This document shows positions 1 through 14,990 of a stretch of DNA of 14,990 nt, piece by piece. Source of the stretch: Candidatus Omnitrophota bacterium. GTDB taxonomy: Bacteria; Omnitrophota; Koll11; Zapsychrales; Fredricksoniimonadaceae. Below the pieces are notes generated by a model. It had not been told where the DNA came from, ran no database searches, and saw only the letters and a list, made by a program, of their open reading frames with translations. Position numbers and translations under genes: made by a program. The DNA is taken from NCBI GenBank assembly GCA_015233705.1, contig JADFXE010000028.1, positions 1-14,990 of the forward strand. Direction: 5' to 3'. Every line of letters begins with the position of its first letter. Positions within the stretch are counted from its first letter, which is position 1.

Positions 1-56
1 TTCGGACAATAACTTACGTCGCGCTGTTGGCGCTCCGTAAGTTATGTCCTCATTTG

Positions 57-130
57 CGGGATGTAGCGCAGCTGGCTAGCGCACTTGCTTTGGGAGCAAG
101 GGGTCCCGGGTTCGAATCCCGGCGTCCCGA
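57..130 (+). tRNA. tRNA-Pro (anticodon UGG), copy 1
   Basis: A full cloverleaf can be drawn. The acceptor stem CGGGATG pairs with CGTCCCG (one G·U), the anticodon stem CTTGC pairs with GCAAG around the loop TTTGGGA giving anticodon TGG, and the T-arm contains GGTTCGAATCC. The discriminator base is A at 130. The 3' CCA is not encoded, so it must be added after transcription. A T-rich stretch starts at 131 and could act as the termination signal. The sequence is identical to the copy 260 bp downstream. Confidence 0.95.
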
Positions 131-316
131 TTTTTCTTTCCGCTGTTTCTTTTTTAATGATCCCGCCGTTGGCGGCGCGGAGTGAATTCGGGCAGATGAT
201 TTGCGTCGCCCGAGAAGGTTCAGATTATTTCGTCACTCAGACCCGTTTGGTCTGAGTAAATTCGGACAATAACTTACGTCGCGCTGTTGGCGCTCCGTAA
301 GTTATGTCCTCATTTG

Positions 317-390
317 CGGGATGTAGCGCAGCTGGCTAGCGCACTTGCTTTGGGAGCAAGGGGTCCCGGGTTCGAATCCCGGCGTCCCGA
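317..390 (+). tRNA. tRNA-Pro (anticodon UGG), copy 2
   Basis: This is base-for-base identical to the tRNA-Pro at 57-130, with the same cloverleaf, TGG anticodon, A discriminator and no encoded CCA. It lies in the second full unit of the 260-bp repeat. If the duplication is real, the organism carries adjacent identical tRNA-Pro(UGG) genes; if it is an assembly product, only one exists. Confidence 0.9.
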
Positions 391-523
391 TTTTTCTTTC
401 CGCTGTTTCTTTTTTAATGATCCCGCCGTTGGCGGCGCGGAGTGAATTCGGGCAGATGATTTGCGTCGCCCGAGAAGGTTCAGATTATTTCGTCACTCAG
501 ACCCGTTTGGTCTGAGTAAATTC

Positions 524-569
524 GGACAATAACTTACGTCGCGCTGTTGGCGCTCCGTAAGTTATGTCC
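524..569 (+). promoter_or_regulatory. Long hairpin over the ptsP start region (also at 4-49 and 264-309)
   Basis: GGAC pairs with GTCC, then after one bulged A ATAACTTACG pairs with CGTAAGTTAT, and an inner GCGC/GCGC stem closes on loop TGTTG. The same hairpin occurs three times, twice 7 nt upstream of tRNA-Pro and once ending 6 nt before the ptsP ATG at 576. The alternative ptsP start ATG at 564 lies within its 3' arm. No T-run follows, so a simple intrinsic terminator is not obvious. Roles in translation control, RNA processing or bidirectional termination are all inference. Confidence 0.5.
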
Positions 570-575
570 TCATTT

Positions 576-2843: not shown

Positions 2844-5214
2844 CCTGCACGTTCATTCCAGGTATTCATCGACGCCGGCGGATCTGGTGCTGAAGAAGTT
2901 CGGTACGCCGGAATCCTACACCGAGCTGGAAGAGGTTTACCGTTCGGCCAAGGCGCGGGGTATGGACTTCGTGACCGTGACCGACCATAATACGGCGTCC
3001 GGCACTTTCAAGCTGGCCGAGATGTGTCCGCAGGAGGCTTTTACTGGCGTCGAGCTGACGACCTGTTTTCCCGAGGATGGCTGTGCGGTCCATCTTCTGG
3101 TCTATGATTTCACGCCGGCCCAGTTCGCGGAACTCGACCGGTTGCGGGGAGATATTTATCAGCTGCGCAATTACATCAAGGCCCAGGGCCTGCCGTATTC
3201 GGTGGCGCACGCGACCTACAGCGTCAACGGCCGGCTGTCGATCGAGGTGATCGAGAAGTTGATCCTTTTGTTCGATGTCTTTGAGTGCATCAACGGCACG
3301 CGCGTCCAGTCGTATAATGATCTTTTGAAAAAAGTTTTGCAGAGTTTGACGCTGGAGAAGATCGAGGAGCTGCACCGCACCCACCGTATCGAGCCGATAT
3401 CCGACACGCCGTGGATCAAGGCGTTCACCGGCGGGTCTGATGAGCACGCCGGGCTTTTTATCGGTGCGACCTACACCACCGGCGAAGGGGTGACGAAACA
3501 GGATTTTCTTGCCGCGCTGCGGGAGAAGCGTACGGATTGCGGCGGGCGGAGCAATCATTACAAGACCCAGGTCTACACCTTTCTCAGAATTGCCTACCAG
3601 TATTCGCGGACCAAGCGAGGCTCCTCTGTCAAGCGGGCCTGGGATGAGCTGTGCGGCGCGATCTTCGACGGGAAGCCCCTGAGCTGGAAGACGCAGTTGA
3701 AGATCCAGCAGCTCAAGCGCGGCCGCAAGAGCAACACGCGCGTCATTGCCTCTCAGGTCGGGGCTCTGGTGCGCCGCCTGGTCCATGACCCTAGCCTTTC
3801 GCACGAACAGAAGATCGATCTGATCTACGAGACTGTGGCTGGGCTGGAGGACGAATTTTTCGTCGCGAATCTCGAGTCTTTCCGCGAAAGTTTTGCCAAG
3901 GGTGATATCCTCAAGATCATGAGCAGTATCACGGCCGTGGTCCGTTCGTTCTTTCTGTCGCTGCCGTTTTTGGGGACGTTCCGTCATCTGCACCAGTCGA
4001 GCGCTATCATGGAAAAGGTGCAGGCGAGATTTTTGGGGCCGCTCAAGCCCGAGGAGCGCCGGGTCCTGTGGTTCTCCGACACGGTCAATGACTTAAACGG
4101 CGTGTCAATCACGTTGCGGAACTTCGCCTCTTTTGCCGGGCGGCAGGGTCTTTCGATCAGGCTGGTCAGCGCCCGCCAGCAGGGCGAGCCGCGGCCGGAT
4201 TACCAGCTGGAACTGCCGACGGTCTACGAGTACACGCCGGACTTTTATCCGAATTACACCATGCGGTTCCCGTCGCTGCTAAAATCGCTGGAGCTGATCT
4301 GCGCCGAACGGCCGACCGAGATCATTGTTTCGACTCCCGGTCCTGTTGGCCTTTTGGGAGTTCTGGCGGCGCGGCTTTTCGGGATCCCGTGCCGGGGGAT
4401 CTATCATTCTGATTTCAGTCGCATGGCTGGCCTGGGGTTGAGCGGCGGGACCATGGCGAGCTTTGTCGAGGGGTTTGTCCGCTGGTTCTACTCGTGCGTC
4501 GATGAGGTGGGTGTGCCCACACAGGAGATCATCCGTCGGCTGATAGTCAGCGGCTACGAATCGTCGCGCCTGACGCTGTTCAAGCGCGGCATTGATACGA
4601 CCGCCTTTGCGCCGGTCCACGGAGAGAAGAATGATCTCAGGCGCTGTTACGGGCTGGATGACCGGATGACCCTGCTTTACGCCGGTCGGGTAAGCCGCGA
4701 TAAGAGTCTCGGCCTTCTGGTCCAGGTTTATCGCGAACTCATCCGTCGCGGGGAGGAGATCAATCTTCTTATTGCCGGTGACGGGCCCATGCTGGAGGAG
4801 CTGAAGAAAGATTTGTCTGATCGTCCGCGGGTCAGGTTCACGGGGCGGCTTGCCCAGCGCGACCTGCCGTTGGTCTATTCCATGGCCGATCTTTTTGTCT
4901 TTCCGAGCACGATCGATACCTTTGGCATGGCGGTGCTGGAAGCCCAGGCCTGCGAGCTTCCGGTGTTGGTGACCAATGTCGGCGGGCCGCAGGAGGTCAT
5001 TCTCGCGGGAACGACCGGCTTTGTCCTGCCGGCCAATGATCTGCAAGCCTGGGTCGACGGCATCCTGAAGGTGAAGGCCATGATGAAGGATGCGCCGAAG
5101 AAATACCAGGCCATGCGGCAGGCGGCCCGGGCGCGGGTGCAGGAGATTTATCCGTGGGAAGGGGCGTTGGCTGATCTGTTCGCCGTGCGGGAGAAGCCTG
5201 CTACAAAGATTTGA
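2830..5214 (+). CDS. PHP-domain / GT4 glycosyltransferase fusion protein
   Basis: This 794-aa protein joins two domains. The N-terminal PHP metal-dependent phosphoesterase-like domain (about residues 1-250) shows ADLHVHSRYS, TDHN and GSDEHAG, with the metal-ligand His and Asp residues expected of the family. A less recognisable, mostly helical linker spans roughly 250-405. A GT-B fold GT4 glycosyltransferase (about 410-790) follows, with LWFSDTVNDLNGVS near its start, LLYAGRVSRDKS, IAGDGPM and the donor-binding stretch DTFGMAVLEAQA. That stretch is the EX7E motif with Asp 696 in place of the first Glu, keeping Glu 704. The start at 2830 opens directly onto the PHP motif; a longer reading frame from 2698 would only translate ptsP out of frame. 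It overlaps ptsP by 14 nt, implying coupled expression. It probably uses a nucleotide sugar to glycosylate a lipid or glycan; acceptor and PHP substrate are unknown. Confidence 0.85.
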   Translation: MPKADLHVHSRYSSTPADLVLKKFGTPESYTELEEVYRSAKARGMDFVTVTDHNTASGTFKLAEMCPQEAFTGVELTTCFPEDGCAVHLLVYDFTPAQFAELDRLRGDIYQLRNYIKAQGLPYSVAHATYSVNGRLSIEVIEKLILLFDVFECINGTRVQSYNDLLKKVLQSLTLEKIEELHRTHRIEPISDTPWIKAFTGGSDEHAGLFIGATYTTGEGVTKQDFLAALREKRTDCGGRSNHYKTQVYTFLRIAYQYSRTKRGSSVKRAWDELCGAIFDGKPLSWKTQLKIQQLKRGRKSNTRVIASQVGALVRRLVHDPSLSHEQKIDLIYETVAGLEDEFFVANLESFRESFAKGDILKIMSSITAVVRSFFLSLPFLGTFRHLHQSSAIMEKVQARFLGPLKPEERRVLWFSDTVNDLNGVSITLRNFASFAGRQGLSIRLVSARQQGEPRPDYQLELPTVYEYTPDFYPNYTMRFPSLLKSLELICAERPTEIIVSTPGPVGLLGVLAARLFGIPCRGIYHSDFSRMAGLGLSGGTMASFVEGFVRWFYSCVDEVGVPTQEIIRRLIVSGYESSRLTLFKRGIDTTAFAPVHGEKNDLRRCYGLDDRMTLLYAGRVSRDKSLGLLVQVYRELIRRGEEINLLIAGDGPMLEELKKDLSDRPRVRFTGRLAQRDLPLVYSMADLFVFPSTIDTFGMAVLEAQACELPVLVTNVGGPQEVILAGTTGFVLPANDLQAWVDGILKVKAMMKDAPKKYQAMRQAARARVQEIYPWEGALADLFAVREKPATKI

Positions 5215-5283
5215 TGGATTGACCCGCAGTGTTATGTATACTACTTCTAGTATTCATTAATGTTCTCTGAAATTTCGTATTGG

Positions 5284-5508
5284 TATCTTACGAGGCCATG
5301 AAAGGGGTTTCGTCGTTCAGCTCGCCCCGCTTTTTCTGAATGGAAGGTAAGCGGGGCTCAATTCACTCCCCAACCCCTTTCATAGCCTCTGTCACGATAT
5401 TTATGTGTCAGCGGTTGGGATGGTTTATGAGTGAATGGAGCCCGACCTACAATTTTTCAGGAAATGGGCGGGCGATTTGAGCGAATAAGCCGTCCCGGCC
5501 GCTGACAT
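5284..5508 (+). ncRNA. Candidate structured RNA, two long stems with complementary loops
   Basis: Domain I: 5292-5309 (GAGGCCATGAAAGGGGTT) pairs with 5372-5389 (AACCCCTTTCATAGCCTC) at 17 of 18 positions. It encloses a perfect 9-bp hairpin, 5324-5332 with 5349-5357. TATC at 5284 can also pair with GATA at 5396. Domain II: 5406-5428 pairs with 5485-5507 over 23 uninterrupted positions, four of them G·U. It encloses GCCCG/CGGGC (5440-5444 with 5469-5473). The single-stranded part of domain I, ATTCACTC at 5361-5368, is exactly complementary to GAGTGAAT at 5429-5436 in the loop of domain II. This pairing can extend to 14 of 15 positions (5354-5368 with 5429-5443) by opening the inner hairpins. The G·U pairs in domain II point to the plus strand being transcribed. 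I recognise no RNase P, tmRNA, SRP or 6S RNA signatures. Ends are approximate and no clear promoter or terminator was found. Confidence 0.55.
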
Positions 5509-5529
5509 CATTACAGTGTCGTACCTATT

Positions 5530-5558
5530 TTGGACTTCAAAGAACGTATATTAATAAT
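5530..5558 (+). promoter_or_regulatory. Probable sigma70-type promoter of the aminosugar/glycosyltransferase operon
   Basis: TTGGAC at 5530-5535 and AATAAT at 5553-5558 are separated by 17 bp, giving five of six matches at the -10 box and four of six at the -35. Transcription would begin near 5565, leaving a leader of about 14 nt before the start codon, with GGAG at 5570-5573 as ribosome binding site. If correct, the structured element at 5284-5508 lies upstream of this transcript and is not its leader. Confidence 0.5.
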
Positions 5559-5578
5559 TTGTTTGCTTCGGAGTTTCC

Positions 5579-7423
5579 TTGCCGCCCATTAAAGAAATAT
5601 TAGATTTAAAAATCAAAAGAGCCGCTAGATCGCCTTTGGCTTGGACTTTGGGCGCCCTGCTGGTTCTGTATTTCTCTGTCTTTATCCTCGGGCCGGTCTT
5701 TATCCGTTCACTCTTTCAGCAGGGGCAGGTGGACCTTCTCAGCCGCCTCACCTTCACTCCCGCAGCGCAAAGTCTTGAGTTCTACCTGGGCCGCAGTCAG
5801 GAATTATTCTGGGGTCCGCTCGCGCAAGTTATCGGCAGTGTTTTCCTTATTATCCTGATGCTCGGCCGCTTGAAGGAAAGTTCTGCCCGCGGTTTTTTCT
5901 TTTTGATCGCCGGATTTCTGCTGGTGACCAAGTGGAGCGTATTAACCTTCCCGCCGTATGGCGACACGGTCATCGGTGCGTTCGCGGAAGCCTTATGGCT
6001 GGCCCAGCACAATTTCAATTATGTCGGCTTGGCCGCACAGCCTGGTTATGCCATGGGTGGGCAAAAGGTTTATCTGGTCTCGTTCTTCCCGACGTATCTG
6101 GCGGCTTTGATGAAGCTGTTCCCCAATGTCAAGACGTTCCTGATCGTGAACCATAAGGTATTCTTCAAGATGGCGGCCGCGGTCGTGCTGTTCGTTCGCG
6201 AGATTGCACGGCGCGCTTATTGTCTGGAGACGGCCAACCTGCTGGCCCTTCTGGTTTTGTCCTGGCCGGTCTTCCAGAGCCAGACCGAGGCGATCAACAT
6301 GGAGATGCCGTGCCTCTTGTTTGCCATGCTTGCGTCGTATGGGCTGGTCAAAGGGCGTACCAATCTGGCCGGCGGTGCGGCGCTGTTGGCGGTGATGGCC
6401 AAGGGGACTGGCGCGTTCGCTTGCGCGGCGTTCGCGGTCTGGGGCATGATCTCTTTATGGATCGGGAAGGATGCCAAGGCACGGCGCACGTGGCTGGTGT
6501 GGGGCGCGGCTCTTTTGATCATGGCAGCGCTGGTGGTCGCCGCGAAATACTGGATCAAGGATTCCCAGACCCAGGAACACTGGATTGGATTTCTCGTCGG
6601 ATGGCAGACGCTGAAATATGTTCATTTGACGTATATCTTCGCGGCGAACGCGGTGCTTTCTTTGGTGATAGCCGCTTTTGACTTTTGGCGCCACAGAAGC
6701 GGCGTCAGGATGGAAAACGTGCAGAAGGAATCCTGGCGGGTCAATCTGATCCAGCTGATCTTTGTGGCGGTGTGGTTTTTGCTGTTCTTGAACTTCGCGA
6801 CGCTCTCGGCGCGGTATAGGGTCGTGGTCTATCCGTTCTTTCTTTTTACTCTGGCCTGGAGTTTTTCTCGTCTTGTGCCTTGGCGTCTTTTGCAGACCGC
6901 GGTGCTGGTGGTTGCGATCCTGGCGGTCCAGGCGAATTCCTACGGTTATTGGAACCAGCCTTACGTGGCGGCAGATGCGCTGCGCCTGGAGGAAAATCTG
7001 CAATATCGCAATGATGCGATCATGCAGCAGCGTTTGGCCAGGACCGTTGAAGAAAAATATCGCAGCTGGGCGGTCGTGGCTCCCATGATCGTGGCTCAGG
7101 AGTTTGCGATCCCGGATTTTGGGTATGTCAAAGCAGCGCGGGACGTTTACATTTACCGCTTCAGCTGCATGTACGGCCCGATCCATCCTTATCCGGGAAT
7201 GGCGGGCCTGAACCTTCTGCGTACGATCTATGTTGCGTTGGCCTGTGACCAGCAAGGCACGACGTTCCCGTATCCATTAAATCCTCAGGATAGGGTTCTG
7301 GAGACGGTCGAGTGGGGCAGCCGGAAGGCCGTGATTTTCATGGGCGGGGTTTCCATTGACCTTATGAAGAAGTTGGGAGATTATGTCAGGCAAGGTGGTG
7401 TCTTGCCGTTAAAGAAGGATTGA
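5579..7423 (+). CDS. Multi-pass membrane glycosyltransferase, GT-C fold (ArnT/GT39-like)
   Basis: This 614-aa protein has about ten or more hydrophobic segments, starting near residues 20-42, 80-97 and 104-122. The first large extracytoplasmic loop contains FPPYGDTVIGAFAEALW, with an acidic residue (Asp 129) where GT-C enzymes carry their catalytic or metal-binding acid. A later NMEMP (241-245) and LAVMAKGTGAFA (Lys 276) resemble conserved patches of GT39-type proteins. Such enzymes take a sugar from a polyprenyl-phosphate carrier and attach it to lipid, protein or glycan on the outer face of the inner membrane. The start is TTG with GGAG five bases upstream. It leads a five-gene operon, and the next gene encodes an enzyme type that loads such carriers. 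The exact family is uncertain; an O-antigen-type or uncharacterised GT-C protein is possible. Confidence 0.65.
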   Translation: MPPIKEILDLKIKRAARSPLAWTLGALLVLYFSVFILGPVFIRSLFQQGQVDLLSRLTFTPAAQSLEFYLGRSQELFWGPLAQVIGSVFLIILMLGRLKESSARGFFFLIAGFLLVTKWSVLTFPPYGDTVIGAFAEALWLAQHNFNYVGLAAQPGYAMGGQKVYLVSFFPTYLAALMKLFPNVKTFLIVNHKVFFKMAAAVVLFVREIARRAYCLETANLLALLVLSWPVFQSQTEAINMEMPCLLFAMLASYGLVKGRTNLAGGAALLAVMAKGTGAFACAAFAVWGMISLWIGKDAKARRTWLVWGAALLIMAALVVAAKYWIKDSQTQEHWIGFLVGWQTLKYVHLTYIFAANAVLSLVIAAFDFWRHRSGVRMENVQKESWRVNLIQLIFVAVWFLLFLNFATLSARYRVVVYPFFLFTLAWSFSRLVPWRLLQTAVLVVAILAVQANSYGYWNQPYVAADALRLEENLQYRNDAIMQQRLARTVEEKYRSWAVVAPMIVAQEFAIPDFGYVKAARDVYIYRFSCMYGPIHPYPGMAGLNLLRTIYVALACDQQGTTFPYPLNPQDRVLETVEWGSRKAVIFMGGVSIDLMKKLGDYVRQGGVLPLKKD

Positions 7424-14156: not shown

Positions 14157-14229
14157 GGTGGCTGTAGATCAGTGGTAGATCCCCTGATTGTGGTTCAGGT
14201 TGTCGCGGGTTCAAATCCCGTCAGCCACC
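14157..14229 (+). tRNA. tRNA-His (anticodon GUG)
   Basis: The acceptor stem GTGGCTG pairs with CAGCCAC. The extra 5' G at 14157 faces the C discriminator at 14229, the G-1:C73 hallmark of tRNA-His. The anticodon stem CCTGA pairs with TCAGG around TTGTGGT, giving GTG, and the T-arm contains GGGTTCAAATCCC. No CCA is encoded. Its last nine bases overlap the end of the recombinase gene on the other strand. Confidence 0.95.
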
Positions 14230-14990
14230 CTTTTCTTGTCGCCACTGCGAAACCGAGCCTGTTGGGGCCACGGTGTCGCAGTTGGCGGGATTAAAACCCT
14301 CATCTCGATCATTGATCGGGGTGGGGGTTTTCTCTTTTTCGGCCAGCACGGCCAATCCTTCCGGTTGGATATAGACGTTCATAATAATCTTGCTGTCATG
14401 GATCTCGATGTTCTGGATCAGGGCGCGGAGAAGGTCTTTCTGGGTTTCTGGCGGAACTTGGTCGATGTTCTCCATCAGGGTCTGGATGTTCTGGTGGATG
14501 TGTTCACCGGAGTGGGCGCTGATCTGTGCGGCCTTGCGGTCGTTTTCGAGTTTCTTGGTTTCCTCATCAAGGGTCGCGATCTCGTTTTCCATGGCGTTCA
14601 GTTTGTTTTTAAAGGTTGGGCCCTGGGCGATGTCGTTCTTCATGGCGATGTTGAGGAGGTTATCGCATTCATGGCGCAGGGTGTTCAGGCGGATCCGCTT
14701 CTCGTTTAAGACAACGTCAATTTCCTCGCACTTGATCTGGGATTCGCGGATGGCCGCACCGATCGCCCGGACGATGACTTCCTGATCCTTGGAGGCGCGC
14801 CGGAAATAGTCGAGGATCGCTTGGTCGAATACGGTTGCGGACACGCGCTTGCGTGAGCATCCTAAGCCTTGGCGCGACCGGCCGCATTCGTAATAATAAA
14901 ACTTCTTATCGCCTCTCCCGTTGGAGTGGACGCCTACCAAACTACTGCCGCAAGTTCCGCATCTGATGAGACCGGCCAAGAGATGTTCGT
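14221..14990 (-). CDS. Large serine recombinase, C-terminal part (runs off the window)
   Basis: The frame is open to the right edge of the window, so the N-terminal catalytic resolvase domain lies outside; only about 256 residues are visible. They begin EHLLAGLIRCGTCGSSL and continue to YYYECGRSRQGLGCSRKRV, a four-cysteine zinc ribbon of the kind found in large serine integrases. A coiled-coil-like, charge-rich stretch follows (LNEKRIRLNTLRHE, then KLNAMENEIATLDEETKKLE), then LLRALIQNIEIHDSKI, which is usual near the end of the family. The final codons and the TGA stop (14221-14223) lie inside tRNA-His. Such enzymes integrate and excise phages or conjugative elements. The TTG at 14979 is merely an internal Leu codon. 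Whether the N-terminal part is intact cannot be seen. Confidence 0.88.
   Translation of the reverse strand, partial: EHLLAGLIRCGTCGSSLVGVHSNGRGDKKFYYYECGRSRQGLGCSRKRVSATVFDQAILDYFRRASKDQEVIVRAIGAAIRESQIKCEEIDVVLNEKRIRLNTLRHECDNLLNIAMKNDIAQGPTFKNKLNAMENEIATLDEETKKLENDRKAAQISAHSGEHIHQNIQTLMENIDQVPPETQKDLLRALIQNIEIHDSKIIMNVYIQPEGLAVLAEKEKTPTPINDRDEGFNPANCDTVAPTGSVSQWRQEKGG

What the first reader, a model, noticed from the sequence alone, without database searches (positions are those of the whole stretch)
5284..5508. Candidate undescribed structured RNA: two long helices with complementary loops
The gap between two operons contains a 17-of-18-bp stem, a 23-bp uninterrupted stem with four G·U pairs, nested hairpins in both, and an exact 8-nt loop-to-loop complement extendable to 14 of 15. 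This much mutually compatible pairing in about 225 nt is hard to explain by chance. The G·U pairs favour a plus-strand RNA, while the single imperfect position in domain I (C·A) is neutral to slightly opposing. A promoter candidate just downstream suggests it is a separate RNA or element, not the leader of the next gene. A MITE-like or IS200/IS605-related palindromic element is the main alternative.
Basis: partly seen in the sequence, partly recalled or inferred. Interest (0 to 1): 0.72.

Follow-up and report, generated by a model that had tools for sequence, protein, structure and literature searches.

The report
Paired mobile hairpin repeats in Omnitrophota
The two hairpins are back-to-back copies of one apparently undescribed hairpin repeat that is scattered between genes in relatives of this uncultured bacterium, and each copy seems to rewrite its outer stem while keeping it paired.

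Summary
In detail: two long, non-random hairpins lie between two genes (fold z -8.4). The reading changes. Domain I (minus strand) and domain II (plus strand) are copies of ONE hairpin family set back to back; the loop complement follows from that inverted homology. The family: outer stem of about 20 bp, a conserved purine-rich internal loop (5'-GYGAA/UGARC-3', letters of a tandem G.A), inner hairpin. Covariance models matched 14 of 81 genomes of one Omnitrophota order (E<=0.1) and 15 of 384 across the phylum (E<=0.001); one genome has 45 matches. All 21 modelled pairs change on both sides. Copies lie between genes in either orientation; one occupied junction is empty in three relatives. All 8 adjacent pairs seen point apart; 5 of 5 intact pairs in the 45-match genome join two subtypes. 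Best reading: a non-autonomous mobile palindrome working like REP/REPIN repeats, but without their tag, size or linked RAYT. Unexpectedly, outer stems differ between near-identical copies yet stay about 93% Watson-Crick, suggesting arm rewriting.

The parts
5292..5389 (-).
   Evidence: R1 and R2 match 5300-5381 (-) at 94.2 and 81.2 bits; the plus strand scores 8.5 bits with R2 (the models were built with this copy); folds -57.1 on minus, -48.6 on plus
5369..5389 (-). Copy 1: 5' outer arm with 3 extra nt next to the loop
5358..5368 (-). Copy 1: 5' side of the conserved internal loop (GAGTGAATTGA)
5324..5357 (-). Copy 1: inner hairpin
5313..5323 (-). Copy 1: 3' side of the conserved internal loop (GAGCTGAACGA)
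5292..5312 (-). Copy 1: 3' outer arm with 3 extra nt next to the loop
5390..5404 (.). 15-nt spacer between the two divergent copies
5405..5508 (+).
   Evidence: R1 and R2 match 5416-5497 (+) at 93.7 and 79.1 bits (the models were built with this copy); folds -60.2 on plus, -37.3 on minus
5405..5428 (+). Copy 2: 5' outer arm
5429..5439 (+). Copy 2: 5' side of the conserved internal loop (GAGTGAATGGA)
5440..5473 (+). Copy 2: inner hairpin
5474..5484 (+). Copy 2: 3' side of the conserved internal loop (GATTTGAGCGA)
5485..5508 (+). Copy 2: 3' outer arm

Best explanation
The pair is one insertion unit of a non-autonomous, interspersed mobile palindrome family of Omnitrophota. SHOWN by sequence: each copy is a hairpin (66-158 nt, median 106, by my stem-extension rule) with outer stem, conserved internal loop whose letters fit tandem G.A pairs, and inner hairpin; copies sit between genes in either orientation; one genome has 45 matches while 64 of the 81 genomes of the order showed none in the searches made; a junction occupied in one genome is empty in three relatives; the adjacent pairs seen are divergent and, where testable, of two subtypes. 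INFERRED: the element moves as a folded single strand, recognised strand-specifically through the G.A internal loop by an enzyme supplied in trans, much as REP/REPIN repeats are thought to be moved by TnpA-REP; the divergent two-subtype pair is the preferred unit and some single copies derive from it. INFERRED: the outer arms are rewritten against each other (template switching across the palindrome, or copying at insertion), which keeps them Watson-Crick while their sequence turns over. Not known: the enzyme, the exact ends, whether movement still occurs, and whether hosts use the hairpin.
For: Inverted homology of I and II. A copy with the same internal loop and different stems in another Omnitrophota genome. 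R1: 14 of 81 genomes of the order at E<=0.1, 10 of them at E<=1e-4. R2: 15 of 384 phylum genomes at E<=0.001, three of which (G110, G227, G330) are order members missed by R1, so at least 17 of 81; 45 matches in G241 at E<=0.01, up to 6 in others, none in G001-G003. Covariation on 97 rows: 94.4% of cells paired, 21 of 21 pairs changed on both sides, 666 double-changed cells against 178.5 shuffled. Codirectional neighbours in G241: 20 rows sense, 20 antisense; other genomes 15 and 18. Empty junction: between the two flanking genes G241 has 197-218 nt that do not align and hold a copy; G396, G110 and G286 have 2, 63 and 19 nt there and no R2 match. Eight adjacent pairs (window 1, G399 1, G241 6), 8 of 8 divergent, spacers 8-26 nt; the five intact G241 pairs are 5 of 5 of mixed subtype (29 A, 18 B copies; chance 0.024, a pattern noticed before it was counted). 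G241 stem positions 10-18: 391 Watson-Crick, 7 G.U, 11 A.C, 11 other of 420 cells, although copies with cores >=96% identical share 46% of arm letters on average (3 copy pairs; 31% in the most diverged bin).
Against: No transposase is linked: Y1 transposases occur in 15 of 19 carriers but also in 11 of 16 genomes without a match, and none of the 12 Y1 loci inspected (of 51 places; 8 from carriers) holds a copy. Flanking direct repeats of 5-6 nt in 6 of 92 copies against 1 of 92 control placements are not decisive. At one junction (G319/G275) the copy is retained between orthologous genes 70-85% identical, with 3 double and 2 single stem changes and no pair newly broken, which may point to host function. 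The empty-site relatives are only about 66-70% identical in DNA, so exact ends cannot be read; two further relatives (G385, G361) covered one side only. The G241 spacer at that junction also holds the 3' half of a second copy, so it is not a single clean insertion. A strand bias in stems (G.U over A.C) outside G241 depends on the counting rule: 72:51, 80:69 and 55:24. In one search G241 copies sense to genes had more G.U (50:11) than antisense ones (35:26), which would favour selection on transcripts; split by zone the difference is not significant (inner 34:3 and 25:3, outer 4:3 and 8:13).
Confidence: 0.65

Rival explanations
1. A functional structured RNA family (trans-acting RNA, or a processing or stability hairpin in operon transcripts) kept by selection on the RNA fold.
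For: Very strong covariation; the strand with the conserved loop folds more stably (-57.1/-48.6, -60.2/-37.3, -43.1/-37.3); orthologous retention with compensation in G319/G275; 40 of 44 G241 rows with both neighbours known lie between codirectional genes; more G.U in sense copies under one counting rule.
Against: Either orientation to genes, so a cis role would need both strands to work; in G241 no flank position from the stem out to 120 nt exceeds 0.73 bits and the highest are A/T-rich positions, so no promoter seems to travel with the copies; outer stems lack the G.U intermediates that compensatory drift would leave; 64 of 81 genomes of the order showed no match (not all rerun with R2).
Confidence: 0.2
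2. A classical MITE of a DDE transposase, a long inverted repeat cut and pasted as double-stranded DNA.
For: Long inverted repeats, multi-copy, intergenic, empty junction.
Against: In G241 the conserved part is the loop and inner part, not the ends; no clear target-site duplication; recurring divergent pairs are not MITE-like. DDE transposase families were not searched.
Confidence: 0.1
3. The element inserts into the apex of pre-existing palindromes (for example terminators), so the outer arms belong to the target.
For: Arms differ between copies with near-identical cores.
Against: Arms are G-rich on the 5' side (38% G, 12% C), unlike the AT-rich flanks, and keep a weak shared signal (Mantel r 0.27, 0 of 2000 permutations as high); by eye, no free palindrome family of that kind is in the list of stems from 133,636 bases of G241 loci.
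Confidence: 0.05

Closest known systems
REP / REPIN / BIME repeats moved by RAYT (TnpA-REP) transposases
   Same: Intergenic palindromes, thought non-autonomous, recognised as a folded single strand, stem irregularity in the E. coli type, inverted dimers, often of two types (PMC3733652 and PMC8266576, passages read; PMC3116915, abstract and section list seen).
   Different: No GTAG or CGTC tag at the stem base (1 and 3 of 95 copies, 5' side), about 106 nt instead of 20-50, a conserved internal loop fitting tandem G.A, no copy near 12 inspected Y1 genes.
CGTC-tagged palindromes (including Rickettsia RPE-4 and RPE-6)
   Same: Palindromes, mostly head-to-head dimers, heterodimers predominating in some families, no dedicated transposase known (PMC3733652, passages).
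   Different: Those have 8-9 bp stems and a CGTC end; here stems average about 20 Watson-Crick pairs and are untagged.
ERIC/IRU and other long palindromic repeats
   Same: About 100-nt intergenic hairpins in either orientation (recalled, not compared here).
   Different: Those share sequence along their stems (recalled); here the outer stems differ between copies.

Membership tests
GTAG REP / REPIN | GTAG tetranucleotide at the hairpin base | tested here: not met
   GTAG within 8 nt of the stem base in 1 of 95 copies 5' and 0 of 95 3'; its complement CTAC in 2 and 2 (stem ends set by my extension rule)
GTAG REP / REPIN | Palindrome of 20-50 nt | tested here: not met
   66-158 nt, median 106, 95 copies
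GTAG REP / REPIN | RAYT gene flanked by the repeats | tested here: not met
   0 matches in 12 of 51 Y1_Tnp places, 8 of the 12 in carriers, about 1.5 kb each side; Y1 in 15 of 19 carriers and 11 of 16 others
GTAG REP / REPIN | Inverted dimers as units | tested here: met
   8 of 8 adjacent pairs divergent; most copies found are single
GTAG REP / REPIN | Intergenic, multi-copy | tested here: met
   45 matches in G241; 4 of 97 rows lay inside an ORF called by my script
CGTC REP | CGTC tag at one end | tested here: not met
   3 of 95 on the 5' side, 2 of 95 on the 3' side; complement GACG 0 and 3
MITE (DDE) | Target-site duplication | tested here: inconclusive
   5-6 nt repeats in 6 of 92 against 1 of 92 control
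Rfam 15 families | Covariance-model match at gathering score | tested here: not met
   Window and 14 loci: only tRNAs; lax search of 5200-5600 gave three hits far below gathering scores
Integron attC | Paired R/L boxes bound by IntI | not tested
   no IntI or attC model run

The most novel reading that the evidence does not exclude
A mobile hairpin that rewrites its own stem: each copy keeps a recognised core while its ~10-19 bp outer arms are replaced by new, nearly perfectly complementary sequence, through copying of one arm from the other during replication or insertion. The stem would then be a palindrome kept by DNA-level concerted evolution rather than by selection on RNA pairing, so strong covariation here would not by itself prove a functional RNA. 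A bolder form, not excluded: the variable arms are guides chosen per copy.
Probability: 0.35. Interest if true: 0.78.

Novelty: new variant of a known kind. Interest (0 to 1): 0.62.

Why it matters
It adds an apparently undescribed repeat family to a phylum with few cultured members (recalled), with a recognisable core motif and a covariance model to trace it. More generally, it is a test case where very strong base-pair covariation may come from DNA-level arm rewriting instead of RNA selection; that would affect how covariation is used to call new structured RNAs in bacteria.

Tried and rejected
Kissing-loop RNA: rejected, because the complement is what inverted homologous copies give and the 'loops' are the two strands of a conserved internal loop.

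DNA-level homologues of the window copy: none in plasmids; three weak 32-nt hits at E 0.2 in the phage collection; in Omnitrophota genomes the blastn hits were short (28 rows, 14 of them fetched as loci). I listed ORFs for 3 of the 14 loci, and those hits lay in coding sequence; I took the rest as chance from their length and from the folds of 8 loci. The G135 copy had no match in the phage collection.

Viral contigs: 47 stretches matched the loose pattern. A search of all 47 with R2 gave one weak match, L061 at 23.5 bits, E 0.018, in a set already selected by the pattern; I count it as chance. Two stricter patterns gave none.

Reverse transcriptase as mover: PF00078 in 4 of 19 carriers and 4 of 16 others, none in G241. 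A recurrent neighbour gene as autonomous partner: the largest cluster of neighbouring ORFs joins 7 rows, mostly at 27-34% identity; nine flanking proteins scanned against Pfam had ordinary chromosomal domains, one of them none. An extended variant in G110, G227, G330 and G113 with conserved flanks was not resolved.

In print: searches listed no paper on such a repeat in Omnitrophota; the papers were seen in the listing only. Only the open library was searched.

Rows dropped: two partial rows (L139:1247, L095:1126) of 97; the first is still counted. One of 48 G241 rows was dropped. In A4 two copies are counted twice because two loci overlap. R2 was trained on four rows with E 0.02-0.09 under R1, so its later strong scores for G371, G397, G196 and G249 are partly circular. 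Rows were found with models holding these motifs, so motif frequencies lean towards the model.

Full report
SETTING. The protein upstream of the gap has relatives (63-72% identity) in three genomes labelled Candidatus Omnitrophota. No genome is held for the window itself, so the copy number in its own genome is unknown. The gap lies between a gene with glycosyltransferase domains (ends 5214) and a 614-aa ORF without a Pfam match (starts 5579), both on the plus strand. In the relatives L001 and L002 the sequence after that gene looks different (read by eye) and R1 finds no copy in L001-L003; L003 ends inside the gene, so it does not cover the gap.

THE OBSERVATION. The stems, G.U pairs and loop complement are present and far from chance. 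The key correction is that the reverse complement of domain I aligns with domain II along its length (score 56, maximum of 500 shuffles 34; direct alignment 20, reached by 109 shuffles). The hairpins fold best on opposite genomic strands: I on minus, II on plus. The 11-nt flanks of the inner hairpin are almost identical in both (GAGTGAATKGA / GAKYTGARCGA). The 'complementary loops' are therefore two copies of one motif in inverse orientation.

THE FAMILY. A pattern made of the two internal-loop strands hit 1 of 384 Omnitrophota genomes, in a hairpin. A model of these three sequences (R1) matched 14 of 81 genomes of that genome's order at E<=0.1, 10 of them at E<=1e-4. R2, from 32 rows, matched 15 of 384 phylum genomes at E<=0.001; in that run at most 11 candidates per genome were scored. 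Three of the 15 (G110, G227, G330) belong to the order but had no R1 match, so at least 17 of the 81 carry it; not all 81 were rerun with R2. With up to 150 candidates scored in 22 chosen genomes (E<=0.01), G241 had 45 matches, G386, G139 and G371 6 each, G249 and G196 5, G275 and G110 4, and G001-G003 none. Two carriers, G235 and G102, are not among the 81; G102's matches are weak (E about 6e-4).

STRUCTURE. On 97 aligned matches 94.4% of pair cells are standard and all 21 pairs show changes on both sides; sliding the partners by 1-3 columns drops pairing to 36-44% (the alignment was fitted to the model). Outside G241 (48 rows) the internal loop is nearly fixed: G46 Y48 G48 A48 A45 opposite U47 G47 A48 R48 C45. 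The Y-R pair covaries: UA 54, CG 37, UG 4 of 97. The letters fit tandem sheared G.A pairs in the PyGAPu context, which I recall as stable in both DNA and RNA; this was not tested.

PLACE AND MOVEMENT. Copies lie in short spacers, mostly between codirectional genes (G241: 40 of 44 rows with both neighbours known), 20 sense and 20 antisense; elsewhere 15 and 18 (ORFs called by a simple script; partners of a pair are counted apart and one partial row is included). The copy at G241 C2:10284-10377 was compared with relatives (10 genomes searched): between the same two genes G396, G110 and G286 have 2, 63 and 19 nt where G241 has 197-218 nt, and no match; G385 and G361 covered one side only. The G241 spacer also holds the 3' half of a second copy. 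G386 and G241 have copies at the same gene junction but in opposite orientation to the genes (proteins 72.5% and 57.6% identical). Against pure mobility, G319 and G275 share a copy at an orthologous junction with compensated stems.

PAIRS. Among fetched loci, eight places have two matches less than 300 nt apart: the window, one in G399 and six in G241 (one partner there is reduced to its bare outer stem and matches weakly). All are divergent, with spacers of 8-26 nt. G241 copies fall into two letter types, A (29) and B (18); the five intact pairs are all A+B (chance 0.024, counted after I had noticed it). The window's arrangement thus recurs and is probably a unit.

OUTER STEMS. In G241 information is high to about position 9 from the loop, then falls to 0.05-0.24 bits at positions 15-23. 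Yet positions 10-18 are 93% Watson-Crick (391 of 420 cells), with few G.U (7) and about as few A.C (11) (the alignment penalised both alike). Three copy pairs with cores at least 96% identical share 46% of arm letters on average. Ordinary compensatory drift should leave G.U intermediates and should not outrun unpaired loops. I read this as arm rewriting. A weak shared signal remains between arms (Mantel r 0.27, 0 of 2000 permutations as high), so some inheritance is also present. The inner part of the stem in G241 is rich in G.U on the core-bearing strand (70 against 6 A.C, summed; test), but much of this is one shared ancestral pair (37 of 47 copies at position 3), so these are not 70 independent events. 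Outside G241 the bias depends on the counting rule (72:51, 80:69, 55:24).

WHAT MOVES IT. Not found. Y1 transposases are common with or without the element, and none of 12 inspected loci carries a copy; reverse transcriptases were not found in the 45-match genome. No conserved promoter was seen in the first 120 nt around G241 copies.

VERDICT. An apparently undescribed family of mobile-looking palindromes that works most like REP/REPIN repeats but fails their tag, size and RAYT tests. Whether it is selfish, useful, or both is open.

Noticed in passing
window 1-575: A perfect 260-nt tandem repeat (2.2 copies, 100% matches) carrying a tRNA-Pro(TGG) at 57-130 and 317-390, at the edge of the window; real amplification or assembly artefact.
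   Followed up: partly
window 14158-14979: tRNA-His (14158-14230) overlapping the end of an ORF on the minus strand with a recombinase zinc beta ribbon (PF13408), which looks like an element integrated at the tRNA.
   Followed up: no
L120, L121, L124, L129, L132, L137 (around 1500): In G110, G227, G330 and G113 the hairpin is embedded in a longer conserved unit: a 5' GGTCACCG-like stretch and a 3' tail AACGATGGCGAAT..GGC..AAAGGTTTAATC, with similar outer stems across genomes.
   Followed up: partly
L149 about 5697-5750: Just downstream of an A-type copy lies the 3' half of a B-type copy, a truncated partner.
   Followed up: no
L139 1238-1287: A partner hairpin reduced to its outer stem with an AGCG loop, as if the core was deleted between short direct repeats.
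   Followed up: no
L098 and L101 (G386 C68 and C46): Two contigs of one genome carry nearly the same region with the element, either a duplication or strain variants.
   Followed up: no
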